Below are positions 9,847-47,936 of a stretch of DNA of 64,000 nt, piece by piece; the first letter of the stretch is position 1, and each line of letters opens with the position of its first letter. Origin of the DNA: a virus. The translations under genes were made by a program, and so were the position numbers. The stretch is from IMG/VR virus record IMGVR_UViG_3300025581_000001, positions 1-64,000 of that record. One strand, given 5' to 3'. The notes beneath the pieces were generated by a model that worked only from the letters and a program-made list of their open reading frames with translations, made no database searches and had not been told where the DNA came from.

Positions 9847-10609
9847 GCATATGTCATCAGTGGTAAGAAATGGCTGGCAAGACCCTGCAGTACGTGCTCG
9901 TCGTATCGCTGGGATAAAGAAAAGCTGGGCTTCTGGGAAACGGAACGCTTCACGAAAGTCGGTTGAGAAAAAGATTGCTGCATATTGGACGGAAGCGCAG
10001 CGAGCCAAGCATTCCGAACGGGCGAAGAAGGTTTTGGCATCTTCAGAGGTTAGACGTAATATGCGGCGCGGTCAGCAGCAGCGTTGGTTACGTGAGTCGG
10101 AGCATACTAAGTATCGCAAGAACATGAAGGTCGTCATGTCAGACCCGAAGCTTCGAAGACGCATTTCATTGACAGAGCGCAAGCAGTTTGCTGCTGGAGA
10201 ACGTAAAGTGCCTGTTATGACAGGAGCACGTTTTCATTCGGGCTGGATGAAGAGCAAGAAGGGTGGAGTATTCTTCGCAAGGTCAGGGTGGGAAAAGATC
10301 TTTACTATGCTTCTGGACTCCAGTCGTCTTGTTGAATGCTTCAAGTATGAACCGTTTGTTGTTCAGTACAGGTACGACGGTGTAATGCGTTCGTACTTTC
10401 CCGATTTCTGGGTGCGCTTCCGTAATGGTAAGGAGTTTGTATTCGAACTGAAAGGCTACGAGTGGGGCGGAAGAAGAGAGCAGTGCAAGGCAAAGGCGTG
10501 TGAGAGGTATTGCGGCACTAACGGGATGGAGTTCGTGCGTTTGGCTGGAGAAGACTGCAATAAACTTTTGCGTCGAGGGTCGTTGGCGCTTACGGAGTTG
10601 GTGCAATGA
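9818..10609 (+). CDS. Homing endonuclease, PD-(D/E)xK type with helical DNA-binding repeats
   Basis: 263 residues. The N-terminal 130 are basic and hold repeated short motifs (VRARRIAGIKKSWASG, AQRAKHSERAKKVLAS, VRRNMRRGQQQRW) like NUMOD-type DNA-contact helices of phage homing enzymes. The C-terminus has a nuclease core: E159, D196 in YFPDFWV, then FVFELKG with E210-x-K212, the PD-(D/E)xK signature. The gene starts inside a copy of the 5' end of the next gene and its stop overlaps that gene's ATG (10606), the layout expected of a free-standing homing endonuclease at its target. Confidence 0.75.
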   Translation: MKQDSKKFSKHMSSVVRNGWQDPAVRARRIAGIKKSWASGKRNASRKSVEKKIAAYWTEAQRAKHSERAKKVLASSEVRRNMRRGQQQRWLRESEHTKYRKNMKVVMSDPKLRRRISLTERKQFAAGERKVPVMTGARFHSGWMKSKKGGVFFARSGWEKIFTMLLDSSRLVECFKYEPFVVQYRYDGVMRSYFPDFWVRFRNGKEFVFELKGYEWGGRREQCKAKACERYCGTNGMEFVRLAGEDCNKLLRRGSLALTELVQ

Positions 10610-11685
10610 ATCTCCAATCATTGACGGCTAATCGGAAGCTACATGGCAAAACCAATTTTCGTGGTCTTCCAATCAGCATCGAAAATCGTAAAGGCTCTTT
10701 GCGTCAGGGTACTGCTAAGAATGGTAAGCGTTGGCAAACTTTTATCAGAAGTCCGTACGGTTATTTGCGTGGTACGGAAGGGGTGGATGGGGACGCTGTT
10801 GATGTTTTTGTTGGCCCCAACTTGGATGCACCAAATGTTTATATTGTGCATACGCAGGAACCAACTACTGGGATTTACTCAGAGGACAAGTGCATGCTGG
10901 GATTCATGACCGCGCCGGAAGCCAAGCTGGAGTTCCTGCGCAACTACGACTCACCCGGCCATTTCCAGTCAATGGACACCATCCCGTTCGAGGAGTTCCG
11001 CGAGCGCGTGCTGGACGGCGAGATGAAGCGGAAGAAGATCGAGGCGTTCGGAACCAGTGAAGGCGTGAAGAAAGAATGGGACACTCGTGGTCGGGGTCGC
11101 AAGACGTGGGATGAAAAACTTTTGCCACCGAAGATTAACTGGAAGGTGCCTGCCAAGACGCAGAAGGTGTTTGATAAGTACGGAGTCAAGGTTCAGCAAG
11201 TGGATGTTCATAAACTTGTCCCATCCGAATACAGGAAATGGGGAGACGTATACTACGGTAGGGCGGACAAGAAGTACATCAATACGATTCGTCAGGCCAT
11301 GCGTCAAGGAAAAGAAATCTATCCTGTTGAGGTGCAGCCAAGTAAGCGCGGTGGTGGGTTGTTCGATGTCGGGGATGGGCACCATCGAGTGTTAGCCGCG
11401 ATGCTTAATGGCAATAAGTCAGTTACAGTCATGATTCCTCCTAAGAAGTTTTCGGATGCGGCGTTTGAAGAGATGTTAGTGGCGACTCCGAAGAGCAAGT
11501 ACAAGTTCATTAAGGCAGCGGCAGGTATCTCCATCGGCGACGAAGTAGTCGTGAACGGCATCAACTACCGCTGGGTGGTGAAGGGCTTCCGGGGCAAATT
11601 GCTGGTGCTGGAGAAGAAGGGCCAGTTCAACGAGCAGCAGCCAAGGACTATTTTGCGGACAGCGCGACAACTGACGAAAATATAA
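10606..11685 (+). CDS. GTSEG-tagged protein: pyrophosphatase-like domain, tag, ParB-like domain
   Basis: 359 residues. Residues ~20-135 match the inorganic-pyrophosphatase-like domain of phage MuF-associated polymorphic proteins: SIENRKGS, then YGYLRGTEGVDGDAVDVF with acidic D61, D63 and D66. The tag GTSEGVKKEWDTRGRGR is at 149-165. Residues ~195-280 look ParB-like, with FDVGDGHHRVLAAML (GDGHHR at 256-261) as the conserved turn. A small beta-rich end (ISIGDEVVVNGINYRWVV) resembles an SH3/KOW-like barrel. It starts at the endonuclease stop. Whether the acidic residues hydrolyse pyrophosphate is untested. Confidence 0.7.
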   Translation: MNLQSLTANRKLHGKTNFRGLPISIENRKGSLRQGTAKNGKRWQTFIRSPYGYLRGTEGVDGDAVDVFVGPNLDAPNVYIVHTQEPTTGIYSEDKCMLGFMTAPEAKLEFLRNYDSPGHFQSMDTIPFEEFRERVLDGEMKRKKIEAFGTSEGVKKEWDTRGRGRKTWDEKLLPPKINWKVPAKTQKVFDKYGVKVQQVDVHKLVPSEYRKWGDVYYGRADKKYINTIRQAMRQGKEIYPVEVQPSKRGGGLFDVGDGHHRVLAAMLNGNKSVTVMIPPKKFSDAAFEEMLVATPKSKYKFIKAAAGISIGDEVVVNGINYRWVVKGFRGKLLVLEKKGQFNEQQPRTILRTARQLTKI

Positions 11686-12168: not shown

Positions 12169-12950
12169 AACGAGTACTGACAATCCGTGCCGACTTCGCG
12201 GTGGTGCCTCCGGTGGGCAGCGCACATATGGATGTCGTGCCAATTTTCCATCCACCAAGCCTGCGCAATCCGATACCAGTGCCTGTAGACGACCCGAGAG
12301 AAACGTGCGACCGTTTCTTCGACGTGTTCCAGCGCACCAGCCTGCGCACCTGGCGCTACCGCATGGAGCTGCTGCGGCATGCACAGCCGAGCGAGCCTCC
12401 GTGGGCGGTCAAGACGTTGGTCGAGCATCCGATGAGCTACATGAATTTGTGGGGCAGCGCGGACGGTATTGCCAAGGCGGTGCACCGGGTCTACGTGAAG
12501 CGCACCGGCAAGCAGCGAGGGCTGTTCAGTATCGAGCAGGACTTGCGCGAGGCAGTGGAGTCGAGATTCTTGCGGTATGGGGACTGGAGTAAGGAGGTGG
12601 GTGAGCGCATCGACGACTACATCGACGAGCGCATGGGCTACATTGGTAAGAGTTTCAAGGGGCTGAACAGTCCGATGTTCGACGGATCCGATGAGCGTGC
12701 TGAGTCTATCGGCGACTATGAAGATCGTTCAGCACGTAACTTCGGGAGTGCCTTGGGCTGGGAGTTCAGCGATCAGCAGGTTAGCAAGATATGGGTTGCC
12801 GAAGAGGATGCATGCGACGATTGTTTGGACAATGCAGACGAGGGGCCGATACCCGTAGGTGAGGATTTTCCTTCTGGTGATTATGCTCCTCCAGCACATC
12901 CCAACTGCCGATGTACTGTCGAGTATGTCGATGATGAGGAAGAGGAATGA
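12165..12950 (+). CDS. MuF-like minor head protein (phage head morphogenesis)
   Basis: 261 residues. The C-terminus has the MuF/SPP1 gp7 pattern: WVAEEDACDDC (C217, C220), then a ~20-residue loop and PPAHPNCRC (242-250), which ends these domains. The middle is helical and rich in acidic residues (EVGERIDDYIDERMGYIGKSF). MuF proteins sit inside or at the portal vertex of the capsid, in few copies, and are often fused or linked to effector domains. Here the effectors are separate tagged genes directly downstream. Its portal partner is 32 kb away, which is unusual because the two normally adjoin. Confidence 0.75.
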   Translation: MKRVLTIRADFAVVPPVGSAHMDVVPIFHPPSLRNPIPVPVDDPRETCDRFFDVFQRTSLRTWRYRMELLRHAQPSEPPWAVKTLVEHPMSYMNLWGSADGIAKAVHRVYVKRTGKQRGLFSIEQDLREAVESRFLRYGDWSKEVGERIDDYIDERMGYIGKSFKGLNSPMFDGSDERAESIGDYEDRSARNFGSALGWEFSDQQVSKIWVAEEDACDDCLDNADEGPIPVGEDFPSGDYAPPAHPNCRCTVEYVDDEEEE

Positions 12951-14872
12951 AGCCACAACGAGTTGCTAACATCACACTGAACGCGAGCATCGCGGTGCTG
13001 TCCAAAGACCCGCTGGCGGTGCTGCGCAGCTTCGTGCAGGCACATGGAACATCAGAAGGTGTTCGCAAAGCTTGGGATACTCGTGGGCGTGGCAGGAAGC
13101 AGGAGCCCAAGGTCTACGCAACCCACAAAGACATTCGCCAGAGCAGCAACTGGGGCGAGATACAGCACCAGTGGCTTGGCAAAGCCGGGCAGGGCGAGGG
13201 CTCGCTGGTCAAGGGCATCCCCATGACCAAGGAGGAAGTGGTCGCCAAGTATCCGACGCTCTACCACGTGACTACTCATGGTGCGGAAATTCAGGATTCG
13301 GGTTTGCTGCTGGCCGGTTCCGCCGACAACAAGGGGGGACTGGGTAGTTCGAATCAGGCGCGAGCCGTCAGTTTTACCACGAGCCTTGCGGATGCGCACG
13401 ATATCCAGAGTGACATTACGCAGATGATCGAGCTGGCCAAGAATCCCGAGTTTTCTACTCTTGAGAAGCTGGCGCATGATGATGAGAAGCGTAGCGGGCT
13501 GAAAGATGGGGCTCTGGATGCAGCGGTTGCGCAGGCGAGGCGGAACTTTGAAGTGAACTGGGAACAAACAGTAAACAATGGGAAGGCGTCGCCAGAGCGC
13601 AAGGAGTCAGGCCTGAAGGATGCGTACAACATGTACCTGTGGGGCCGTGATAGTGCAGGCGGAGGACAGAACACAATCATCTTCGGCGACCTGAAGGACT
13701 TCAGGAACCTGGATGCTGGTAAGGTGTCGGTGCTCGCGGTGCCGTCGAAGAACATTCCCGACGGTGCGCTGTGCCGCGACGAGGTGAGCAATAAGTTTCT
13801 GCACGAGTTGCAGGTTGATGCTGATGTGCCAGTGGATGGTGTGAAGATACAAGCCTACGGTACCAGTGAGGGAGTTAAGAAAGCTTGGGACACCCGAGGA
13901 CGAAGTACCTATCCGAAGGCATCGGATACAGTAGATGGCCTGCATGTTGGAAAGGACATTCCAAACACGGATTCAATTGCTGCGACTCTTAGTGATAACC
14001 ATGAGATTCAACAGGGCATCCGTGAAGTGCCGATGTCGGAGTTTAACTCGAAGCCGACAGAGATGTTCTACGCGGCAGACGACATACAGCGGACGAAAGA
14101 CTTGGCCGAGCGTATCAAGCAGTCCGGCGAGATAAATCCGCTGATTGTGGTTGTGGACAAGGATGGCCCTTATATCTTGGAAGGGGGTCATCGACTTGGG
14201 GCGTTGAATATACTCAGCAAGCAGAAGTTTCCTGCGCTGGTTGTGCACGACACGTCATCGGACATGGGCATTCAAGCCTACGGGACATCCGAAGGCGTCA
14301 AGAAGGCGTGGGACACCCGTGGCCGGGGCAGACACGAGCAGGCAGCGACCCCGCAGCTGCACGGCCTGGGCAAGATCGGCGACGTGAAGTCGCCGCAGGA
14401 AATCTACAAGGCGTACGGGCAGTGGCGCTCGTACTGGAGCAAGACCGACAACGAGCACGTGCAGGCGACGCACGCCGTGGGCATCATGCGCGACATCGCC
14501 AGCTCCTACGAGAACATGGAGAAGAAGGGCGACAACGACGGCGGCTTCGTGAAGAGCGAGGCCATGCGCGACCAGAAGGGCAACATCGTCGCCGCCGTCG
14601 CGCTGTCCGCCATCGGCAAGGACAACCTGATGCTGGACTACCTGACGGTGCACCCGGCGGTGCTGATGGGCAAGGTCGACGCCAAGGGCGTGGGCACCCG
14701 CATGATGGTCGAGGCTGCGAAGTACGCGCAGTCCGTGGGCAAGGGCATCAAGCTGTTCGCGCTGGAGGGGGCGGAGGGCTTCTACCGCAAGTGCGGCATG
14801 AAGGAGGACGGCGGGGTGTACTCGTTCGATAAGCAGCAGGTGAAGGACTTCGTGGAGAGGGTGGGCAAATGA
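12947..14872 (+). CDS. Three-tag polyprotein: ART-like, ParB-like and GNAT domains
   Basis: 641 residues built from three tag-plus-domain blocks. Tag 1 (34-50) precedes a domain opening LYHVTTHGAEIQDSG with AVSFTTSLADAHDI, resembling phage ADP-ribosyltransferase-like folds. Tag 2 (~305-319) precedes a ParB-like domain (EINPLIVVVDKDGPYILEGG then HRLGALN). Tag 3 (~446-462) precedes a GNAT acetyltransferase: LMLDYLTVHPAVLMGKVDAKGVGTRMM has the acetyl-CoA loop (here KGVGTR), and GAEGFYRKCGM is the usual end. The three tags are near-identical in protein but differ at many synonymous sites. Start ATG 12947 overlaps the MuF stop. Confidence 0.7.
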   Translation: MKPQRVANITLNASIAVLSKDPLAVLRSFVQAHGTSEGVRKAWDTRGRGRKQEPKVYATHKDIRQSSNWGEIQHQWLGKAGQGEGSLVKGIPMTKEEVVAKYPTLYHVTTHGAEIQDSGLLLAGSADNKGGLGSSNQARAVSFTTSLADAHDIQSDITQMIELAKNPEFSTLEKLAHDDEKRSGLKDGALDAAVAQARRNFEVNWEQTVNNGKASPERKESGLKDAYNMYLWGRDSAGGGQNTIIFGDLKDFRNLDAGKVSVLAVPSKNIPDGALCRDEVSNKFLHELQVDADVPVDGVKIQAYGTSEGVKKAWDTRGRSTYPKASDTVDGLHVGKDIPNTDSIAATLSDNHEIQQGIREVPMSEFNSKPTEMFYAADDIQRTKDLAERIKQSGEINPLIVVVDKDGPYILEGGHRLGALNILSKQKFPALVVHDTSSDMGIQAYGTSEGVKKAWDTRGRGRHEQAATPQLHGLGKIGDVKSPQEIYKAYGQWRSYWSKTDNEHVQATHAVGIMRDIASSYENMEKKGDNDGGFVKSEAMRDQKGNIVAAVALSAIGKDNLMLDYLTVHPAVLMGKVDAKGVGTRMMVEAAKYAQSVGKGIKLFALEGAEGFYRKCGMKEDGGVYSFDKQQVKDFVERVGK

Positions 14873-16222: not shown

Positions 16223-17149
16223 ATGCAGATTACCATCAGCCCAACAACCGCCAACGTCAAGTTCGGTGGCAAGCAGAAGTTCACAGCGTCCGAGCCGGGA
16301 GTGTTTTCCATTCAGACTGAGATCGGGTCGACCATCGACCAGAACGGCAACTACGTCGCAGGTCAGCCGCAACCAGTGGATGCATCTGGTCAACGAGTGA
16401 ATGACGCCGGGCAAGCACTGAACACTGCCGGTCAACCGGTAAATGCTGCTGGTCAGCCAGTGGATGCTGCTGGTCAACCAATAGTTGGACGAGTGAATGC
16501 TGCCGGTCAACAAGTGGATGCAGCTGGCCAACCAATCGCTGGTCAATCAGTAGCTGGTCAACCAGTACCTGCTGGTCAACGAGTGGATGCAGCTGGTAAA
16601 CCAGTACCTGCTGGTCAACCAGTGAAAACCGGCGACCCGAATTACAACTCGAATCGCAACCCGAATCGCAATCCGAACGACCCGAATTACAACCAGAACA
16701 ATCCGAAACCTGGCGACCCGAACAATCCGAATCGCAACCCGAATCCGACAATGACGTCAGCGAGTGATACCGTGACCGTTACCAGCAGCAAGGAAGGCGG
16801 GATCACGAAGGCGAGTGCTGGCATTAACGTAAGTAACTTACAGCCAAACCAGCAACCCAACCAGCAACCCAACCAGCAACCCAACCAGCAATCCAAGGGG
16901 GCAAGAATGATTACCATCAATCCGACAAGTGCCAACCTCAAGTTCGGTGGCACCCAGAAGTTCACGGCGTCCGAAGGTGCGGTTTTCTCAGTCCAGTCGC
17001 AGAACCGCTCGACCATTGATCTGGACGGCAACTACACTGCAGGCCAGCCGTCGAATGCGACGCAGACGTCGGCGACCGATACGGTGGTTGCCACGAGCAA
17101 GGCGAATGCGAGCGAGAAGGTGAACGCCACCGTTAGCCTCAGCAAGTAA
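16223..17149 (+). CDS. Two Ig-like domains with a repeat-expanded loop (nested start 16907)
   Basis: 308 residues from ATG 16223 behind AGAGGAG. Domain 1 starts ITISPTTANVKFGGKQKFTA; domain 2, from residue 229, starts ITINPTSANLKFGGTQKFTA, so the two are duplicates. Domain 1 is split after NYVAGQPQ (residue 50) by ~125 residues of low-complexity repeats: AAGQPVD-like heptads, then Asn/Pro-rich stretches. Domain 2 keeps the same loop short (NYTAGQPSNATQ). Four PNQQ units link the domains. ATG 16907 is in frame behind AAGGGGG and could give domain 2 alone. A capsid or tail decoration role is likely. Confidence 0.7.
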   Translation: MQITISPTTANVKFGGKQKFTASEPGVFSIQTEIGSTIDQNGNYVAGQPQPVDASGQRVNDAGQALNTAGQPVNAAGQPVDAAGQPIVGRVNAAGQQVDAAGQPIAGQSVAGQPVPAGQRVDAAGKPVPAGQPVKTGDPNYNSNRNPNRNPNDPNYNQNNPKPGDPNNPNRNPNPTMTSASDTVTVTSSKEGGITKASAGINVSNLQPNQQPNQQPNQQPNQQSKGARMITINPTSANLKFGGTQKFTASEGAVFSVQSQNRSTIDLDGNYTAGQPSNATQTSATDTVVATSKANASEKVNATVSLSK

Positions 17150-21359: not shown

Positions 21360-22360
21360 CGTTCCTGCCAGCTAACGCGCATGATGGTTGCGCGATGTGG
21401 AGGCTCTGGATGCCGCATTTGCGGACGTCGGAGTCGCGCTACTTCTCGCAGGCCCCGGTGCCCTTCAAGGCGCTGGCCGGGTGCAACGTGGTGGTGGTGC
21501 AGCGCTTGGCGTCGTATGAGAACTATGCGACCTTGGAGAAGTTCAAGAAGATTGGGTTGGGCATTATCTATGACCTTGATGATGACATGTGGGCGGTCGC
21601 AGCGTCGAATCCTGCAGCTCCCATCATCAAGCGGCTGCGCGGCGAGATGGCGGGCTTCGACGAGTGCTCGAAGTTGGCCGACGTGGTGACCGTCTCGACC
21701 GGACGGCTGGAGTCGTCGGTGAAGACTAACATGAAGCACGGGGTGCCGACGCGGGTGGTGATGAACGCGGTCGAGATGGCACTGTTCCGGCCTTCGGTGT
21801 TGCCCAAGAATCCAGACCGCGTGGTTATAGGTTGGGGTGGTTCAGCTACACACGCTGAAGACTTGCGCGAGATGGGCGACGCCCCGCTGGCGCTGCTGCG
21901 CGTTGAACCGAAGGCGTTCCTGCACTTCGTCGGTATGATTCCCGACAAGCGGTATATTGGCAACCCACGCATCCTGGCCCACGGCTGGGTGCCAGTGCAC
22001 GAGTACGCGGTGCGCCTGAGCACGTGGAACTGGGACGTGTACCTTGCTCCCTTGACTGATAGTCGTTTCAATCGAGCCAAGAGTGGAATCAAGGCATATG
22101 AGGCCGGGGCCATGAAGATACCCTGCCTGATGTCGGACGTGCAGCCGTTCCGCGAGTTCGTTTGCCACGACAAGGAGCTGGAGTGGCTGCTGTGTCGTTC
22201 GCCGAAAGATTGGTTGGATAAGCTGCGCGAGCTGGTGAATGATAAGCAATTGCGCGAGCATCTTGGGGAGCGGTGCTACGAGGTGGTGCGGGAGCACTTC
22301 TCAATGGAGAAGCGGGCTCCGGTGTGGAAGCAAATCTACGATTCAGTGGTGCACTCATGA
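21341..22360 (+). CDS. GT-B glycosyltransferase (GT4-like)
   Basis: 339 residues. GIIYDLDDDMWAV (a conserved acidic N-domain strand), VVMNAVEMALFRP (the N-x-V/I-D-xxxF-P linker), VVIGWGGSATHAEDL (start of the C-domain) and SGIKAYEAGAMKIPCLMS (the phosphate-binding loop) follow in the order expected for GT4. It would use a nucleotide sugar in the cytoplasm; acceptor unknown. It starts inside the previous gene and is linked by ATGA to the next. Confidence 0.75.
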   Translation: MSGARIAFLPANAHDGCAMWRLWMPHLRTSESRYFSQAPVPFKALAGCNVVVVQRLASYENYATLEKFKKIGLGIIYDLDDDMWAVAASNPAAPIIKRLRGEMAGFDECSKLADVVTVSTGRLESSVKTNMKHGVPTRVVMNAVEMALFRPSVLPKNPDRVVIGWGGSATHAEDLREMGDAPLALLRVEPKAFLHFVGMIPDKRYIGNPRILAHGWVPVHEYAVRLSTWNWDVYLAPLTDSRFNRAKSGIKAYEAGAMKIPCLMSDVQPFREFVCHDKELEWLLCRSPKDWLDKLRELVNDKQLREHLGERCYEVVREHFSMEKRAPVWKQIYDSVVHS

Positions 22361-25161: not shown

Positions 25162-27852
25162 ATGCCGATAACTCTACTGCAGGGCCGGAAAGTTTATAAC
25201 CAGCCAGACACCGGCCTCGTCCGCGACCAACTGCAATGGCTGCAGGATACATTCAACAAGTATGGAGCCGCCTACTGGGTACGCTCCATGCTGTGGATTC
25301 TGAAGAAGAATCCTGAGCCTGATACTAAGCAATTCGTCCCATCAGCACAGTGGATGCGTCGCCTTGTTCCCTTCCGCTACAACCGCATCCAGCACGATCT
25401 AGAGCGCACTATGGGGAAGCGCAATATCTGCTGCAAGCCTCGGCAGGCCGGGTATTGCGTGGATGGCGACGTCGAGGTTGTGCTGCCTAATGGCCGCATT
25501 ATTAAGTACCGCAAGCTGACCAAGAGTAGTCATGTGCTCGACGAGTTTGGGAAGCCTATACCCATCAAGAATACTTACATCATCCCTGACTTCGCTCATG
25601 AATACAAAGGCGCAGCTACTACGGTGTTCAGCACTGCGCAGGCCAACGGCGTCACCGTGGCTCCTAATCATCCGTGGCTGACCCAGCGTGGTATGGTCGA
25701 GGCGCAACATCTGACTACCAGCGACTATCTGGCGCAGCCCATGTGCAAGCTGGAAGCCAGCACCATGCTGAAGCCTCGCGAGACTGGAGTGGTGGCTGGG
25801 CTGAAGTTCGGCGGAGTGAGTATCAAAGATTGCAGCATCACAGTGCGTAAGTCGTCGCCGGAGAAGCGCAGCTACGTCGAGGTGCACACCTTGCCACGAG
25901 TGCGAGCGGTGCTGCATGGGCAGCCGCTGCAAGGAAGCGCAATGATCAAGTGGGTCAAGACCGCATTGGGCGAGAAGCGCATGACTGACGCGGTGTTTAA
26001 GTATGGTCGTGAGTTTCTAGTCGGATTGCTTGAAGGCTGGTTGGTGGGGCGTGGGCATTGGCTGCGGCGGTCGATTACAGTAACGACATCGCGGGTGGTG
26101 GAGATGAACCTTATCCGGCAGGTATGCTTGGCGCTGGGTGTTGGCCTGCCCTACTTAGACGGTGAGACCCTGCGATTCCAAGGTGACTGCTACGACCGGC
26201 TGCATGACCTGCTGTACGGTGGCAAGCGACTGGACGACGGTAAGCGGCGCGATCAGTATGTTGATGGGGATTACACTTATGTTCGGGTACGCAAGACAGC
26301 CAAGACGAAGTGTGCTGAGTTTTTCGACATCGAGGTAGACAGCGACTCCCACTTGTACTGGCTGCCCATCGGCCTGACCCACAACACTACATTCTTTATC
26401 AACCGTCGCCTGTTCCTGCCCGCTATCCTGGAGCCGGGCTCTGGCGGTTTGCTCATCTCGCAGACCCACGGCTATGCGGCGCAGCACTTTCGCATCCTGC
26501 AGCGCGCCTACCGTTATGTCGGGGTGGTTGACCCTATCGACTATGAGAAGAATCTGCTGAGCCGCCAGCTTAAAGAAAACCTGTTGCATCTGCGGTACTC
26601 GAACCGCAAGGAACTGATCTTCGATCAGATTGATTCGTCGATTCTGGTGGAATCGGCGGAGGTGGAGGAAGCCGGTCAGGGCATTACCCTGTCGCATCTT
26701 CACGGTACCGAGGTCAGCCGCTGGCCGGGCAACCCCGAGGAGACGCTGGCTAACCTGAAGGAGGCGGTATCGGCTGGCGGAACTGTTGACCTTGAGGCGA
26801 CCCCGAACGGGCAAGGCGGATACTTCTTCGAGGAGTATAACCGGGCCAAGCGCGGCGGCAAGGATGTGGAGTTTGTCGCCCACTTCCATGAGTGGTTCTG
26901 GCACGATGAGTACCGGCTGGAACCTGCTATGGAAGAAGGCGAGTTGGATGAGGAAGAGCGGCGCAAGAAGATGCTCTTCGACTTGGACATGGAGCAGATG
27001 ACGTGGCGGCGCAAGAAGATCGTGCAGCTGCGGCACAACTTCAAGGAGAAGTACCCAGAGAACGATGTCGATTGTTTCTTGAGCAACTCTCGCATGTTCT
27101 TCGACTCGGAGATTGCGTCTGCCCGCACCGACGAGCTATCGGTGTACAAGCCACTCAGTGTGGAGCGCAACGGTGAGGTCGTCTTCTTCCAGAAGCCGAT
27201 TCGGGGGAGGAAGTACGTGCTGGGTGGTGACCCGGCTGAGGGCAAGCAGATCAACAATGAGGAGTCGGACTGGAGCGCGGCCAAGGTTATCGACGAGGAG
27301 ACCGGCGAGGACTGCTGCGCGTTGCGGGTCAAGGAGCCGCCGGAGGACTTCGGTGCAGACTGTGTGGAGCTGGGTGAGTACTACAACAATGCAATGGCGG
27401 TGATCGAGAGGAACAACCACGGCGGCACCGTCATCCTGGCGATGCGCGAGCTCGGTTATGGAAATATCTATAAGCACCGCGAATGGACGAAGCGCGACCG
27501 CAGGCGCATGGGCAAGAACCAGAACCAGGGCGATGCCAAGCAGTGGCAGGAGTTCGAGGGCTGGCCGGAGAACGTTAAGACCCGTAAGCTGCTGCTGAAC
27601 AAGGCAGCGGAGTTCATGCGGCATTATCCTGAGTACGTGTGGGACTACGACATGATGTCGGAGATCAAGACCTTCATCTACGACGAGAAGGGCGTGCCCA
27701 AGGCGATGGAGAACTACCACGATGATCGAGTGTTCGCTTGGGCGCTGGCGCACATCGGTCGGCTGGTGAACTTAGGTTATATAGACCCTCTGACTTGGAA
27801 AACACGCCGTTACGGGGAGACAGAAGATGAGACGGAATCAGAGGCTGCTTGA
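25162..27852 (+). CDS. terL: Large terminase subunit (ATPase-nuclease) with intein in Walker A
   Basis: 896 residues, of which 310 are an intein (99-408). The joined extein is 586 residues, a usual TerL length. Splicing would rebuild CKPRQAGYTTFFINRRLFL, the TerL Walker A (R-Q-x-G-x-T-T). GTEVSRWPG fits the post-Walker B region; GGDPAEGKQ supplies the first nuclease Asp; AVIERNNHGG and YHDDRVFAWALAHI match the later nuclease motifs. TerL pumps DNA into the prohead through the portal and cuts it. Without splicing the ATPase would be dead. No small subunit is evident beside it. Confidence 0.9.
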   Translation: MPITLLQGRKVYNQPDTGLVRDQLQWLQDTFNKYGAAYWVRSMLWILKKNPEPDTKQFVPSAQWMRRLVPFRYNRIQHDLERTMGKRNICCKPRQAGYCVDGDVEVVLPNGRIIKYRKLTKSSHVLDEFGKPIPIKNTYIIPDFAHEYKGAATTVFSTAQANGVTVAPNHPWLTQRGMVEAQHLTTSDYLAQPMCKLEASTMLKPRETGVVAGLKFGGVSIKDCSITVRKSSPEKRSYVEVHTLPRVRAVLHGQPLQGSAMIKWVKTALGEKRMTDAVFKYGREFLVGLLEGWLVGRGHWLRRSITVTTSRVVEMNLIRQVCLALGVGLPYLDGETLRFQGDCYDRLHDLLYGGKRLDDGKRRDQYVDGDYTYVRVRKTAKTKCAEFFDIEVDSDSHLYWLPIGLTHNTTFFINRRLFLPAILEPGSGGLLISQTHGYAAQHFRILQRAYRYVGVVDPIDYEKNLLSRQLKENLLHLRYSNRKELIFDQIDSSILVESAEVEEAGQGITLSHLHGTEVSRWPGNPEETLANLKEAVSAGGTVDLEATPNGQGGYFFEEYNRAKRGGKDVEFVAHFHEWFWHDEYRLEPAMEEGELDEEERRKKMLFDLDMEQMTWRRKKIVQLRHNFKEKYPENDVDCFLSNSRMFFDSEIASARTDELSVYKPLSVERNGEVVFFQKPIRGRKYVLGGDPAEGKQINNEESDWSAAKVIDEETGEDCCALRVKEPPEDFGADCVELGEYYNNAMAVIERNNHGGTVILAMRELGYGNIYKHREWTKRDRRRMGKNQNQGDAKQWQEFEGWPENVKTRKLLLNKAAEFMRHYPEYVWDYDMMSEIKTFIYDEKGVPKAMENYHDDRVFAWALAHIGRLVNLGYIDPLTWKTRRYGETEDETESEAA
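25456..26385 (+). mobile_element. Intein in terL with degenerate LAGLIDADG domain
   Basis: The intein starts at Cys99 (CVDGDVEVVLPNG, block A) and ends HLYWLPIGLTHN before Thr (+1), with the penultimate His and terminal Asn needed for splicing. GVTVAPNHPWLT is block B. FLVGLLEGWLVGRGHW looks like one LAGLIDADG helix, with G in place of the catalytic acid and no clear second helix, so the homing function is probably lost while splicing residues are intact. The insertion point is exactly the P-loop, a favoured intein site. Confidence 0.9.
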
Positions 27853-42091: not shown

Positions 42092-43084
42092 ATGGAAAAT
42101 CTAATCATGGAGCCGGTGACCCGGCTCACGAAAGACCTCGCTGTGGCAGCGGCTACGTTGAGCGTGCGTGAAGCGCGCTACCTTGTCGATGCCTACTACA
42201 CGATTCAGGACTACCGCATAGCGTCGGACGCGCAAATCAGGGAGATGACCAAGTCCGGTGAGCCTCATGACGTCCTGAAGTGGGCGGCGAAGCAGTACAT
42301 CACTCTTGAATCGCAATTGAAGCGGTCGCTGGACAAGTGGACGGACAACCAGTACATGGGCCGTTGGGCGAAAGCGATTTGTGGTATCGGCCCGGTTATC
42401 TCCGCCGGTCTGCTGGCGCACATCGACATCGAGAAGGCCCCGACAGTTGGCCACATCTGGCGCTTCGCTGGGCTCGACCCGACTAATAAGTGGCTGGGCC
42501 GTGAGAAGTCCAAAGCTCTGGTCATGTCGGTTTGCGGTTCCGCCAATGTTGTTACCGAAGAGCAAATTACACAGATTGCCACTCTTGCCTTTTACCGAAC
42601 GGAGCAGCTTCACACAATGGTTGGGGAAGGTTCGGTTACGCGTAAGAAGTTGGTGACTGCATTGACCAAGCGGCCCTACAACGCCGACTTGAAGACGCTG
42701 TGCGCTTTCAAGCTGGGCGAGAGCTTCGTGATGGTGCAGAACAACAAGAACGATATCTACGGCAAGGTCTTCGCCGCGCGCAAGCGCGAGGAGGAGGCGA
42801 AGAACGATGTGCTGGCATTCAAGGCGCAGGCCGAGCAGATACTCGTCACCAAGAACTTCGACAAGACGACAGACGCGTACAAGGCGCTGATTCAGGGGCG
42901 TTTGCCGCAAGCGCAAATCCACGCAAGGGCACGGCGCTATGCGGTGAAGCTGTTTTTATCGCACTACCACGCTGAGGCATACCGGCAGCGCTTTGGTAAG
43001 GAGCCACCGTTGCCGTATCCGATTGCGTTCCTTGGGCATGCACACATGATTGATGGGCCGAAGATAACCAGTATAACCGAGTGA
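42092..43084 (+). CDS. IS110-like helix-hairpin-helix protein (transposase C-terminal type)
   Basis: 330 residues. AKAICGIGPVISAGLLAH (93-110), then HIWRFAGLDP (121-130) matches the C-terminal domain of IS110/IS116 transposases (I-x-G-I-G-P-x-x-A-x-x-L-L-A...F-A-G-L-D-P). Later helices also fit (PYNADLKTLCAFKLGESFVM; ARARRYAVKLFLSHYH). The N-terminus lacks the DEDD nuclease residues of true IS110 enzymes as far as I can see, so it is a stand-alone HhH protein, probably binding branched or structured nucleic acid. Its stop codon lies inside the first unit of the A/B array. Confidence 0.7.
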   Translation: MENLIMEPVTRLTKDLAVAAATLSVREARYLVDAYYTIQDYRIASDAQIREMTKSGEPHDVLKWAAKQYITLESQLKRSLDKWTDNQYMGRWAKAICGIGPVISAGLLAHIDIEKAPTVGHIWRFAGLDPTNKWLGREKSKALVMSVCGSANVVTEEQITQIATLAFYRTEQLHTMVGEGSVTRKKLVTALTKRPYNADLKTLCAFKLGESFVMVQNNKNDIYGKVFAARKREEEAKNDVLAFKAQAEQILVTKNFDKTTDAYKALIQGRLPQAQIHARARRYAVKLFLSHYHAEAYRQRFGKEPPLPYPIAFLGHAHMIDGPKITSITE

Positions 43085-44250
43085 ACCGTTGTGTATGAGT
43101 GAGCCAACTGCGAAGAAATAGAACCATGAGTAGTGAGCGAGTCAACTAGTAAGAGAGAACCATTGAAAGCGAACGAGTCAGGGAAGTCGAATAGTACCAG
43201 TGTCTTCGAGCGAGTCAGCATGAGCGAGAGTACCAAATGTATCGAACGAGTCGTAACAGTAGAGGGAACCGGGTCTAGTGAACGAGTCGTGTTGGACGAG
43301 AGCACCATGATTCAAGAACGAGTCACGTGAAATGAGAGAGCCTGAGTACGCGAACGAGTCAAGCACCGCGTGAGAACCAGAATTTACGAACGAGTCATTG
43401 GTCTCGAGAGTACCACGAAACCAGAACGAGTCACGAGAAACGAGGGTACCAAACGAAGCGAGCGAGTCAGATTGCAAGAGAGCACCATGTGAGAGGAACG
43501 ATCCATTGAACCCGATAGTACCAACACTTGTGAGTGAGCCGTGGATTCTGATAGAACCATCCTGCTGGAAGCGAGTCATGTTGTCTGAGAGTACCAAAAA
43601 GAGAGAACGAGCCTTGGGCATTGAGAGTACCATGCGCCCCGAGAGCGAGTCAGCGATCCGAGAGAGCACCATACGAAAGGAACGAATCATCAGATTAGAG
43701 GGAACCACTAGATGTGAATGAGTCAGGGCCTTCGAGGGAACCACAAAACACGAGCGAGTCGAATCGAATGAGAGCACCGGATCAAGCGAACGAGTCAGTT
43801 GAGTCAGGTACAATGAGAGAACCATCTAGACCGAACGAGCTATCACCTCGAAGAGTACCAGTAGATAGGAGCGAGTCATGCGACGCGAGGGCACCAGTTG
43901 ACTTGAGCGAGTCACTAGTTTTGAGAGAACCATCAAAGGAGAACGAACCAATACATACGAGAGCACCAGTACGTATGAGTGGGGCCATAGCATTTGAGAG
44001 CACCAGATGTGCGGAGCGAGTCGTCGGCTTTGAGAGAACCGTTGATGTAGGTTGATGTAGAACGAGTCACCGCAAAAGAGCGAACCACTGAAGAAGAACG
44101 AGTCAACGGATAGGAGAGTACCAGGTTCCTGGAACGAGTCATCAGCTTAGAGAGAACCGGTGATGTGGAACGAGTCACAACGCCTGAGAGAGCCAGCGGA
44201 AGGGGAACGAGTCAATGTCATAGAGGGCACCAATATCGGAGAACGAATCC
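43079..44250 (+). repeat. 32-unit array of two alternating 10-bp motifs (A/B array)
   Basis: Each ~36-bp unit is motif B (consensus GAGAGYACCA), 8 variable bases, motif A (GAACGAGTCA), 8 variable bases. Motif A copies start at 43097, 43135, 43171, 43208, 43244, 43280 and so on to 44241: 32 copies, 20 of the 31 intervals exactly 36 bp, the others 37, 38, 45 or 46. Variable octamers do not repeat. Indels are not multiples of three, so no frame stays open on either strand. The strand is purine-rich. It begins at the HhH stop and ends at a strong terminator, so it is probably transcribed as a long RNA. Confidence 0.95.
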
Positions 44251-44252
44251 TA

Positions 44253-44289
44253 ATGCAGGCGCTAACTCAACAGCGCCTGCATCCTTTCT
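44253..44289 (+). terminator. Strong intrinsic terminator closing the A/B array
   Basis: ATGCAGGCGCT (44253-44263) pairs with AGCGCCTGCAT (44272-44282): 11 perfect pairs, 8-nt loop, then CCTTTCT. It starts 3 bp after the last motif A. The stretch from 44290 to 44388 before the portal shows no feature I can support. Confidence 0.85.
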
Positions 44290-44388: not shown

Positions 44389-46458
44389 ATGCGAATCGTT
44401 CCCAAGTTCGTCGCCACCATTTTTGCGTCCATCTTTTCCTCCGTCCACCGACTCCACCAAGAGTACCTGGCCAGCGAGATCAAGAAGCAGCGCATGGGCG
44501 AGATCGTGCGAGTCATGAAGGTGGCGCACGCGCAGGAACTGACCGAGCTGGACGTCGCGCAGTGGCCGATGAAGGTGCAGGAACAGAAAGAGCGTATCGC
44601 TGCGGTCGCAGCGGGCAACCTCGACGCTATGATTGTCGACCGTCGCTCCTGGTCATATCCGTACTTGCCAGAGTCGCTGCACCGCCTGAACCAACCCATT
44701 CTGAAAAATACGCCATCCAATTTGCGGCGATTCAGCGAGACGCCCATTCCCCGTCGAGCCATCAATCTCATCAGGAATCAGATTCTGGCCAAGCGCTGGG
44801 AAGTCCGCGTTGCCGGAGAGCAGGGCAGCAGCGAGCCTACGCCGAAGCAGAAGAAGCGCATCGACATTGCTACCGCCTGCCTGCAGCAGCCCAATGACGA
44901 GGGTGGCGGATGGCGGGCCTTCGCCGAGGCGGTGCTGGAGGACGACATTATTGGAGGCTACGGTTGCATTGAGCCTCGCGTTACTCCCAACTACAAAAGG
45001 CCCCTCAAGCTGTGGCCGGTGGATGGTTCGACCGTCCGCATATTCGCCGACTGGACGGAGTCGACTCCCGACCGCCCGCGCTATGCGCAGATGACTGGAC
45101 TCAAGGGTGAGCGTGGCATTGTGGCCTTCCGCGACGACGAGCTGATCTACATCAAGTCGAACAACCGTAGCAACACTCCCTTCGGACTGGGCAAGCTGGA
45201 AGTGGCATTCAATTCTGTCAACTCTTTCCTCGGCATCCAGGATATGTCGGGTAAGGCTGGCTCCGATCAGGTGCACAAGACGATGCTGTGGTGGCAGGCG
45301 TCGCAGCTTTCCGCTAACCTTTCCAATGTGCGTCGCTACTTGACCAACGAGCTGGAGCAGCAGTCGAAAATCTCGCTCATTAGTGGCATGCCGCAGCCGC
45401 AGGTTATCGATATCAAGGCGACCACCCCGGAAGACCTGCTGCTTGACTGGCAAAAGTTTCTTATCATCATAATCGCCGATGCATTCGACTTGTCGCCTCC
45501 AGCTTTCGGAATTACTGACAACGTGAATAAGGCGGTTGGGCAGGTGCTCAGCGATCAGGACTTCTTCGGTGCGGTGGTGCCGTTAGCAGCGTCATTCGAA
45601 GGTGAGATGACGTTGCGGGTCATCCATCAGCATTTCGGCTGGCGTGACCTGGAGTTTCACATCATCGGACTCGAAGACCCTGATCCACTCACCAAGAAGA
45701 CCCTCCAGCAGCGTGACTACATGATGAACGCCATCACCCCCGACGAGATTCGCAAGGATGGAGGCAAGCCTCCGTTGCCCGGAGGCTGGGGCCGATTGAC
45801 GCAGGGGCAGTGGCAGATCATCATCGCGCAGGCTATGGCGCAGTCGCGCACTGCTGGTGCTGGTGGCGGCGGAGGTTACGGTGGCGGCATGGGCAGCGGC
45901 GGAGGCTTCGGTAGCGGTGCTGGGATGCCATCAGCTACCTCGGGAACAACCATGGGCCTGCCCAGCAGCGGTGGCATGGGGCGCGGCAGTATCGGCGCAG
46001 GCGCGTTCTCGGCTGACGACGTCGCTCAGATGACACCGGAAGACATTCAGTACTTACAGGAGTCGGGGCTGCTCCCAACCGATAATTCGGAGCTTGGCAA
46101 CCAGATGGAGCAGGAGCAGCCCGGCATTTTACAGACGCTGACCGAACAGTTGCGCTCGTTCTTCGAGATTGAAGATCAGTACAAGCACGACAATCAAGTC
46201 GAGCCAGAGGAGATCACCTCGGAAGACCAGAAGGAGCAGAAGAAGCGCTTTGCGCAAGACCAGCACGTGCAGACTTGGCGTGAGTCAGTAGTGAATGACC
46301 GTGGGCTGGCGCGGGTGCCTCCACGTCCCAACCTCGACCAGACGCAGCCCGACTATCCGCTGATGCGCAATGCGGTTAGTCAGAAGGTTAAGGACAGCAT
46401 CGCCAAGCGGAAGGGAAAGTATCCACGCAGCGGTGGTGAGCGGAGTGATTACCGATGA
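44389..46458 (+). CDS. Portal protein
   Basis: 689 residues. The core shows the usual portal order: PIPRRAINLIRNQILAKRWE (N-terminal helix-strand), EDDIIGGYGCIEPRV (wing strands), LWPVDGSTVRIF, DDELIYIKSN, GLGKLEVAFNSVNSFLG (helix before the crown), LISGMPQP, FDLSPPAFGITDNVNKAVGQ (the stem-clip turn). A Gly/Ser-rich linker (~485-545) and a long charged tail follow, longer than usual. The portal ring is the DNA channel and the dock for terminase and connectors. No small terminase or terL is adjacent; terL is 17 kb upstream. It overlaps the protease gene by 4 bp. Confidence 0.85.
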   Translation: MRIVPKFVATIFASIFSSVHRLHQEYLASEIKKQRMGEIVRVMKVAHAQELTELDVAQWPMKVQEQKERIAAVAAGNLDAMIVDRRSWSYPYLPESLHRLNQPILKNTPSNLRRFSETPIPRRAINLIRNQILAKRWEVRVAGEQGSSEPTPKQKKRIDIATACLQQPNDEGGGWRAFAEAVLEDDIIGGYGCIEPRVTPNYKRPLKLWPVDGSTVRIFADWTESTPDRPRYAQMTGLKGERGIVAFRDDELIYIKSNNRSNTPFGLGKLEVAFNSVNSFLGIQDMSGKAGSDQVHKTMLWWQASQLSANLSNVRRYLTNELEQQSKISLISGMPQPQVIDIKATTPEDLLLDWQKFLIIIIADAFDLSPPAFGITDNVNKAVGQVLSDQDFFGAVVPLAASFEGEMTLRVIHQHFGWRDLEFHIIGLEDPDPLTKKTLQQRDYMMNAITPDEIRKDGGKPPLPGGWGRLTQGQWQIIIAQAMAQSRTAGAGGGGGYGGGMGSGGGFGSGAGMPSATSGTTMGLPSSGGMGRGSIGAGAFSADDVAQMTPEDIQYLQESGLLPTDNSELGNQMEQEQPGILQTLTEQLRSFFEIEDQYKHDNQVEPEEITSEDQKEQKKRFAQDQHVQTWRESVVNDRGLARVPPRPNLDQTQPDYPLMRNAVSQKVKDSIAKRKGKYPRSGGERSDYR

Positions 46459-47936
46459 ACCTGACCCTTAGCTCGATGCAGATGCAGTCCGAGGAGTGTG
46501 GGCACTTCTGCGACATGGATGCCGAGGAGCAGCACCCTAACGCTTCACCATTCAAGGGCGTGCTCCTGATGGTCGATGAGGCATCGACCCGCCCGCCGAA
46601 CGGGGCCGAGGGGCACCGCATCATGGTGCCTAAGAAGGTCGCCAAGAGCCGCCTCGCGTCGCTCATCGGCATGGGGCTGAATCATTCCAGTGGGCTCGAC
46701 CGGCACAATCCGACGCAGAAGGTTGGGGTCATCGAGCGGGCCTGGATTAAGGGTAAGGAGGTCTGGTGCTCAGGCGTGATCTGGGCCAAGGACTTTCCCA
46801 ATGCGGTAGGCCGCTTGCGTACTGGTGGCATGGGTATGTCGATGGAGTTGGCCGACGTGCTTGTCGAGGACAAGGATTCGGACGTATGGAAGCTGATTGA
46901 TTTTGATTTCACCGGGGCGACCGCGCTGAAGAAGCACGCCGCCGCGTACGAACGTACGACCCTCGCAGCGTCAGCTTGCGAGAAAACCACAAAAGGAGAA
47001 GTAGCCGCTATGTCAGTTAAGAAACCGAGCAAGTCCAGCGGCAACGGCGATCTTGCAAAGCTGATTGCTAATGCCGTAACGACCGGGGTGGTATTGGCTA
47101 TGAAGCCGATGTCGGTTGCCCTTGGGGAAGTTAACGCAAGTTTACTGACGCAGAATGAAACCATCGGAGCGCTAGCCGCAGCCACCCTGAATGCTGCAAA
47201 GGACTCCGACGACGCCGCTGCAGCCAAAGACAGCGATGACGCTGCTGCAGCCAAAGACAGCGATGATGCTGCTGCTGCAAAGGACTCGGATGATGCTTCC
47301 GCTGCTGCCGCTAAGGGCAAGGATGCTGCCGACAGTTCCAGCACCACCAGCGAAGATCAAGAAGACGACACCGACGACGAGGACGAGTTGAAGGCGGAGC
47401 TGGCCAAGCTGGGCAAGAGCACGAAGAACTCATTGGCCACCGACGAGTCTGGCGATTCCGACCCCGAGTTCGGAAGGCTGAACGACAACGTGAAAGAGGG
47501 TGTCTTGCACTATCCGAAGGGTCACAAGACAACGGTCAGCGCTGCCGCCCAGCGCAACAGCGGACGTTTGTTCCAGCTGGCGGCTTCCGCCATCCAGACG
47601 GCGGAGAAGGTGCGCAAGGGTCAGCAGAAGATCGTCAAAGCGCTGCGAGCCGAGAAGGACAAGCGGCATGAGTTGGAGGAGCAGGTCGAGGACATGCAGG
47701 CGCAGGCCGACGAGTTTGCGTCCAGCATCCACCGCAAGACTCTACCCGGCAACTACTACATGCTGCTGGAGAAGTCCGGCTACACGGTCGGCGACATCAG
47801 TGCGTCGGGCCAGAAGTTGACCATTGAGCAGCAGGATTCCATCGTCCGCACCGCCCGCGAGTCGGGAGTGCAGATGAGCATCCTGGACGCCATGACCTTC
47901 AAGACCAAGTTGGTCGAGGCCGGGCTGGCGGAGTAG
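46455..47936 (+). CDS. Prohead protease fused to scaffold (nested scaffold start 47010)
   Basis: 493 residues. The N-terminal ~165 residues look like a phage prohead protease: IMVPKK..., GLNHSSGLDRHNP (H77 and H84 as candidate catalytic His), then GMGMSMELADV (S129 as candidate nucleophile). The rest is scaffold-like: acidic, Ala-rich, with four KDSDD repeats and a long coiled coil (RAEKDKRHELEEQVEDMQAQ). ATG 47010 is in frame behind AAAAGGAG and would yield the scaffold alone, as lambda C/Nu3 does. The protease would trim scaffold during capsid maturation. Confidence 0.75.
   Translation: MNLTLSSMQMQSEECGHFCDMDAEEQHPNASPFKGVLLMVDEASTRPPNGAEGHRIMVPKKVAKSRLASLIGMGLNHSSGLDRHNPTQKVGVIERAWIKGKEVWCSGVIWAKDFPNAVGRLRTGGMGMSMELADVLVEDKDSDVWKLIDFDFTGATALKKHAAAYERTTLAASACEKTTKGEVAAMSVKKPSKSSGNGDLAKLIANAVTTGVVLAMKPMSVALGEVNASLLTQNETIGALAAATLNAAKDSDDAAAAKDSDDAAAAKDSDDAAAAKDSDDASAAAAKGKDAADSSSTTSEDQEDDTDDEDELKAELAKLGKSTKNSLATDESGDSDPEFGRLNDNVKEGVLHYPKGHKTTVSAAAQRNSGRLFQLAASAIQTAEKVRKGQQKIVKALRAEKDKRHELEEQVEDMQAQADEFASSIHRKTLPGNYYMLLEKSGYTVGDISASGQKLTIEQQDSIVRTARESGVQMSILDAMTFKTKLVEAGLAE
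47193..47300 (+). repeat. 27-bp coding repeats (AAAAKDSDD x4)
   Basis: Four in-frame copies of a 9-residue Ala/Lys/Asp unit inside the scaffold part. The DNA copies differ mostly at third positions, so they are not a very recent expansion. Alanine/acidic repeats make a flexible or helical spacer. Confidence 0.85.

What the first reader, a model, noticed from the sequence alone, without database searches (positions are those of the whole stretch)
43079..44250. A 1.17 kb array of 32 alternating A/B motif pairs, unlike any repeat class I know
Two 10-bp motifs, GAACGAGTCA (A) and GAGAGYACCA (B), alternate for 32 copies each, separated by 8-bp octamers that are all different. The motifs are held constant while the spacers are free, and spacing is kept at 18 bp, so something reads the motifs and their phase. 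It is not CRISPR (repeats too short and two alternating types) and not iterons of one type. Possible roles: an RNA sponge for a host or phage RNA-binding protein, a scaffold for a nucleoprotein fibre, or a DNA docking platform for replication or packaging.
Basis: partly seen in the sequence, partly recalled or inferred. Interest (0 to 1): 0.95.

Follow-up and report, generated by a model that had tools for sequence, protein, structure and literature searches.

The report
Phage guide-RNA array (TIGR-TasA system)
The strange stretch of two alternating 10-letter motifs is a TIGR array, a store of about 31 paired short guide sequences that a neighbouring phage protein (TasA) should use to find DNA; the system type was described in 2025, but this array belongs to a large family in viral contigs whose guide pairs come and go as whole units.

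Summary
The 64 motifs (32 edge, 32 loop repeats, about 18-nt pitch, variable 8-nt spacers) form a dual-repeat TIGR array, the guide array of TIGR-Tas systems (Faure et al., Science 2025, PMC12045711). The gene running into it (42092-43084) encodes the matching solo-Nop TasA protein: its family profile hits solved TIGR-TasR (1.8e-23) and TasH (1.5e-13), and its AlphaFold model's best structural matches are TasR and TasH, then IS110. An 11-bp hairpin closes the array. The published prototype, Salicola phage CGphi29, carries nearly the same repeats with 8-nt spacers. The family is large: of 80 Tas loci found by protein alone, 74 carry this array, always on the tas strand. New here: between phages with about 99% identical TasA, only about half the guides are shared, and the two spacers of one predicted 36-nt tigRNA are kept or lost together (147:26) far more than neighbours from different tigRNAs (98:72; p=2e-8). 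No targets stood out in its own 120-kb genome or 2.8 Mb of TIGR-bearing contigs. DNA binding by TasA without cutting is inferred, not shown.

The parts
42092..43084 (+). tasA: 330-aa solo-Nop Tas protein (PHROG 'transposase' family phrog_4285, Pfam Transposase_20); no HNH or RuvC domain found
   Evidence: sequence and fold match TIGR-TasR 9mty and TasH 9w04/21kl, more weakly IS110 transposases
42503..42670 (+). about 55-residue helical insertion in the TasA Nop region (residues 138-193), of similar size in 4 of 51 aligned homologues, absent in 47
43079..44250 (+). TIGR array: 32 edge repeats (A) alternating with 32 loop repeats (B); 31 complete edge-spacerA-loop-spacerB-edge units
43079..43088 (+). 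first, degenerate motif, overlapping the tasA stop codon (43082-43084)
43097..43106 (+). first edge repeat (GAGTGAGCCA)
44241..44250 (+). last edge repeat, degenerate at its 3' end (GAACGAATCC)
44253..44282 (+). 11-bp perfect hairpin just after the array, followed by CCTTTCT: likely intrinsic terminator of the precursor RNA
   Evidence: -22.7 kcal/mol for the stretch, z -3.4; not picked up by the simple terminator scan (T-tract too weak)

Best explanation
The array is a TIGR guide array of a TIGR-TasA system carried by a tailed phage. Transcription through tasA continues into the array and stops at the hairpin at 44253-44282 (inferred). A host RNase, with TasA required, cuts the transcript in the middle of each edge repeat (motif A) into about 31 tigRNAs of 36 nt, of the form half-edge, spacer A, loop repeat, spacer B, half-edge (inferred from the published systems). 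A TasA dimer holds each tigRNA by the box-C/D-like ends of the edge and loop repeats. Spacers A and B pair with opposite strands of one adjacent DNA site of about 16 bp. Having no nuclease domain, TasA would bind and bend the target rather than cut it, for instance to repress a gene or block replication of the host or a competing element. Shown here: the array, its TasA gene, the edge/loop signatures, the terminator-like hairpin, the family-wide gene-array link and the co-inheritance of spacer A with spacer B. Inferred: expression, processing, DNA binding, targets and biological purpose.
For: (1) TasA: phmmer of the window protein hits 9mty (TIGR-TasR, 1.5e-8) and TasH 21kl (3e-4). Profile of 51 array-linked homologues: 9mty 1.8e-23, TasH 1.5e-13, IS621 9e-6. 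AlphaFold model pLDDT 91.2; the 11 best Foldseek PDB hits are all TasR or TasH, then IS110. (2) Array anatomy fits the published definition: two alternating 8-12-nt repeats, short spacers, 36-nt unit. (3) The published prototype, Salicola phage CGphi29, carries AAGCGAGYCA / AAGACAACCA with 8-nt spacers, almost the window's repeats; it is one of only two phages in INPHARED that match this protein family. (4) RNA signatures: edge positions 3 and 8 covary (GAGCGAGCCA, GAACGAGTCA), positions 4 and 7 change with them in GAATGAATCA, and the last base (A or G) matches between edge and loop consensus in each locus. Both are described for TIGR arrays. (5) Gene-array link: of 80 loci found by Tas protein alone, 74 carry the array, all on the tas strand, and 2 of the other 6 show repeats of period 35 or 36. 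Tas was found in 50/50 and 23/38 array contigs, the misses mostly short fragments. (6) Spacers A and B of one predicted tigRNA are retained or lost together, 147:26 against 98:72 for neighbours from different tigRNAs, p=2.4e-8; without one redundant pair p=2.0e-6.
Against: No RNA or binding data. Spacer pairs show no target above chance in the phage's own genome and no excess over shuffled pairs in 2.8 Mb of TIGR-bearing contigs, so the guide function is not confirmed by targets. The terminator's T-tract is weak. The contig sets were partly chosen by presence of array or tas, so the less biased gene-array figure is the one.
Confidence: 0.94

Rival explanations
1. The array is DNA that TasA, or a ParB-like protein, binds directly as a partition, packaging or replication platform; the spacers carry no information.
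For: Many sites in near-constant phase; the portal gene follows the array; ParB-like domains are encoded elsewhere in the window; the paper reports ParB-like genes in operons with some tasA.
Against: Edge positions covary as base pairs and edge/loop last bases match per locus, which are RNA signatures; spacers A and B are inherited as pairs in the tigRNA frame; the array lies on the same strand as tas in 74 of 74 loci, which DNA binding would not need.
Confidence: 0.03
2. The array is an RNA sponge that titrates an RNA-binding protein of the host.
For: Many copies of two short motifs on the coding strand; transcription is likely.
Against: It does not explain the dedicated Nop-domain protein next to the array across the family, the edge/loop alternation or the paired turnover of spacers.
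Confidence: 0.02
3. A degenerate remnant of a protein-coding repeat gene.
For: The 18- and 36-nt periods are multiples of three; some arrays in other loci have long open frames.
Against: Nine irregular spacers in the window array, most of them +1 or +2 nt, and many 17-, 19- and 20-nt steps elsewhere break any frame; spacers are unconstrained; no listed ORF spans the window array.
Confidence: 0.005

Closest known systems
TIGR-TasH of Salicola phage CGphi29 (SpTIGR, PMC12045711)
   Same: Phage-borne; array downstream of tas on the same strand; edge AAGCGAGYCA and loop AAGACAACCA with 8-nt spacers at 18-nt pitch, last edge running into a terminator; homologous Nop domain
   Different: TasH has an N-terminal HNH nuclease, the window protein does not; the Salicola array is shorter (about 10 units by eye); most of its repeats begin AA where the window's begin GA
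TIGR-TasA systems (e.g. Flavonifractor plautii FpTIGR, PMC12045711)
   Same: Solo-Nop effector, dual-repeat array, 36-nt unit
   Different: FpTIGR has 18 nt of spacer per unit, here 16; published arrays most often have 5-15 units, here 31; a 55-aa helical insertion here
IS110/IS621 bridge-RNA transposases
   Same: Homologous Nop-like RNA-binding region; dual guide logic
   Different: No DEDD catalytic domain found here, no single bridge RNA, an array instead
CRISPR arrays
   Same: Repeats interspaced with variable spacers
   Different: Two alternating 10-nt repeats, 8-nt paired spacers, unrelated effector, no Cas1/Cas2 seen among the genes examined

Membership tests
TIGR-Tas | Two distinct alternating 8-12-nt repeats with short (mostly 9, here 8) nt spacers, 36-nt unit | tested here: met
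   10-nt repeats; 18-nt pitch in 4003 of 4611 steps across loci
TIGR-Tas | Adjacent Tas protein with Nop domain | tested here: met
   the gene 42092-43084 ends where the array begins
TIGR-Tas | Edge and loop repeats share box-C/D-like ends that covary between them; covarying pair inside the edge repeat | tested here: met
[quoted passage not shown]
   the T-tract is weak and the simple scan missed it
TIGR-Tas | Typically located in phages, archaeal viruses or other mobile elements | tested here: met
   virus record with portal and terminase genes
TIGR-Tas | Array processed into 36-nt tigRNAs bound by Tas | not testable with these tools
   needs small-RNA sequencing; the predicted unit is the unit of turnover
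TIGR-Tas | Tandem-spacer targeting of the two strands of one DNA site | tested here: inconclusive
   no targets above chance in own genome or in 2.8 Mb of TIGR-bearing contigs; true targets may lie elsewhere
TasH or TasR subtypes | N-terminal HNH or RuvC nuclease | tested here: not met
   no nuclease domain found, all-helical N-terminus; hence TasA
IS110 transposase | DEDD catalytic domain with bridge RNA | tested here: not met
   only the Transposase_20/Nop region matches
CRISPR | Single direct repeat of 25-36 nt, spacers of similar size, Cas proteins | tested here: not met

The most novel reading that the evidence does not exclude
Phage TIGR-TasA arrays are a fast-changing store of paired guides: whole 36-nt units are gained, lost or swapped at many places along the array while TasA stays almost unchanged, without recognised adaptation genes, so the phages update what TasA binds, probably by recombination between arrays or by an unknown acquisition route.
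Probability: 0.45. Interest if true: 0.8.

Novelty: new member of a known kind. Interest (0 to 1): 0.55.

Why it matters
TIGR-Tas was announced in 2025; its natural targets, the role of nuclease-free TasA and the way arrays change were stated as open questions. This window adds a 31-unit example, shows that a dual-repeat TasA clade with one conserved repeat pair is abundant in viral contigs, and gives natural comparisons in which the guide pairs turn over as units. That makes array evolution testable from existing metagenomes, and the paired inheritance supports the two-spacer guide model for the nuclease-free branch.

Tried and rejected
Nucleotide search of the locus and protein searches with the window's own Tas and portal found nothing in INPHARED, and single-sequence scans of viral contigs found nothing; the array pattern and the 51-sequence profile did. 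Rfam: no match. tRNAs: none. Own-genome targets: best matches 14 of 16, as in shuffled pairs. Targets in 2.8 Mb: 11 exact pairs in the geometry I derived from the published cleavage pattern against 4-10 in five shuffles, none in the carrier's own sequence, taken as chance. CRISPR, iterons, coding repeats, RNA sponge and type III toxin-antitoxin RNA (also 36-nt repeats, but no toxin-like gene next door) were considered and dropped. I did not scan for each guide pair in the large collections: a 16-nt site would give tens of chance hits (my estimate). No tree of Tas proteins was built.

Full report
WHAT IS THERE. The window is bases 1-64000 of a 120,726-bp virus record with a terminase gene (25162-27852) and a portal gene (44389-46458). 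Between the gene 42092-43084 and the portal gene lie 64 alternating motifs. Type A is GARYGARYCR, type B GAKRGHACCR; 54 of 63 spacers are 8 nt and spacer columns carry at most 0.22 bit. Shuffled sequence gives no such array.

HOW IT WAS IDENTIFIED. Arrays of up to 92 motifs were found in those loci. Where a Tas gene lies just upstream on the same strand, it most often ends 12-13 bp before the first motif. In the window the upstream gene is the 'transposase' phrog_4285. That combination pointed to TIGR-Tas, recalled from memory and then checked in the paper itself (PMC12045711).

TESTS OF MEMBERSHIP. The protein matches TIGR-TasR and TasH by sequence and fold, IS110 more weakly. It has no recognisable nuclease domain, so it is a TasA. 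Motif A behaves as the edge repeat: positions 3/8 covary, 4/7 follow in some loci, and its last base matches that of motif B in each locus. The array ends in an edge repeat followed by an 11-bp hairpin. The prototype Salicola phage array has nearly the same repeats and the same 8-nt spacers. Searching by protein profile gave at least 510 Tas-coding stretches; of the 80 loci kept, 74 carry this array, all on the tas strand, and two of the remaining six show other repeats of period 35 or 36.

HOW IT SHOULD WORK. By the published rules the array gives 31 tigRNAs, each pairing one spacer with each strand of a target. TasA lacks a nuclease, so binding without cutting is the best guess. None of this was measured for this phage.

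TARGETS. Own genome: nothing above shuffled pairs. In 2.8 Mb of TIGR-bearing contigs, 1522 distinct spacer pairs gave 0 exact self-targets, and totals like those of shuffled pairs. So there is no sign that these phages aim at themselves or at each other, within the power of a 16-nt test; many of the contigs were held only in part.

TURNOVER. Arrays from related phages share guides in order but with many units gained, lost or replaced along the whole array, although their TasA proteins are about 99% identical in the two best pairs and the aligned DNA of those contigs about 88-91%. Within a predicted tigRNA the two spacers share their fate in 147 of 173 cases; for neighbouring spacers of different tigRNAs in 98 of 170 (p=2.4e-8; p=2.0e-6 without a redundant pair). 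The array pairs were picked because they share spacers, and units are not fully independent, so the p-value is a guide only. I found no report of this in the library searched, which holds no preprints and few subscription papers.

VERDICT. A clear new member of a known kind.

Noticed in passing
L092:618-2774 (-): A 718-aa Tas protein carries an intein-like insert (Hint and LAGLIDADG domains; begins with Cys, ends in HN before Cys) inside its Nop domain.
   Followed up: partly
L323 (PP438412.1, Microcystis phage Mvi-JY20): An annotated 'hypothetical protein' (record 21367-22092) is a Tas relative, followed by an array of alternating ATGCGAGCCA / ACGAAACCCA-like repeats and a terminator-like hairpin: apparently an unannotated TIGR system in a named cyanophage.
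   Followed up: partly
window 10606-11685 and 12947-14872: ParB-like domains (phrog_1033, 1.9e-7; phrog_4715, 1.3e-4). ParB-like genes are reported in operons with some tasA, but here they lie about 30 kb away.
   Followed up: no
L030:758-2221 (-), L115:372-1835 (+): 487-aa Tas proteins with a long N-terminal extension without a Pfam match.
   Followed up: no
L063, L095, L098, L092: Arrays in which nearly all motifs score as type B (L063, L095, L098), and one with a B-A-A pattern (L092): possibly diverged edge repeats.
   Followed up: no
L256:4920-5280, L295:3610-3910: Tas loci with other repeats of period 35 and 36, missed by the window-derived motifs.
   Followed up: no
window 16370-16896 and 47192-47305: Short tandem repeats inside predicted genes.
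   Followed up: no
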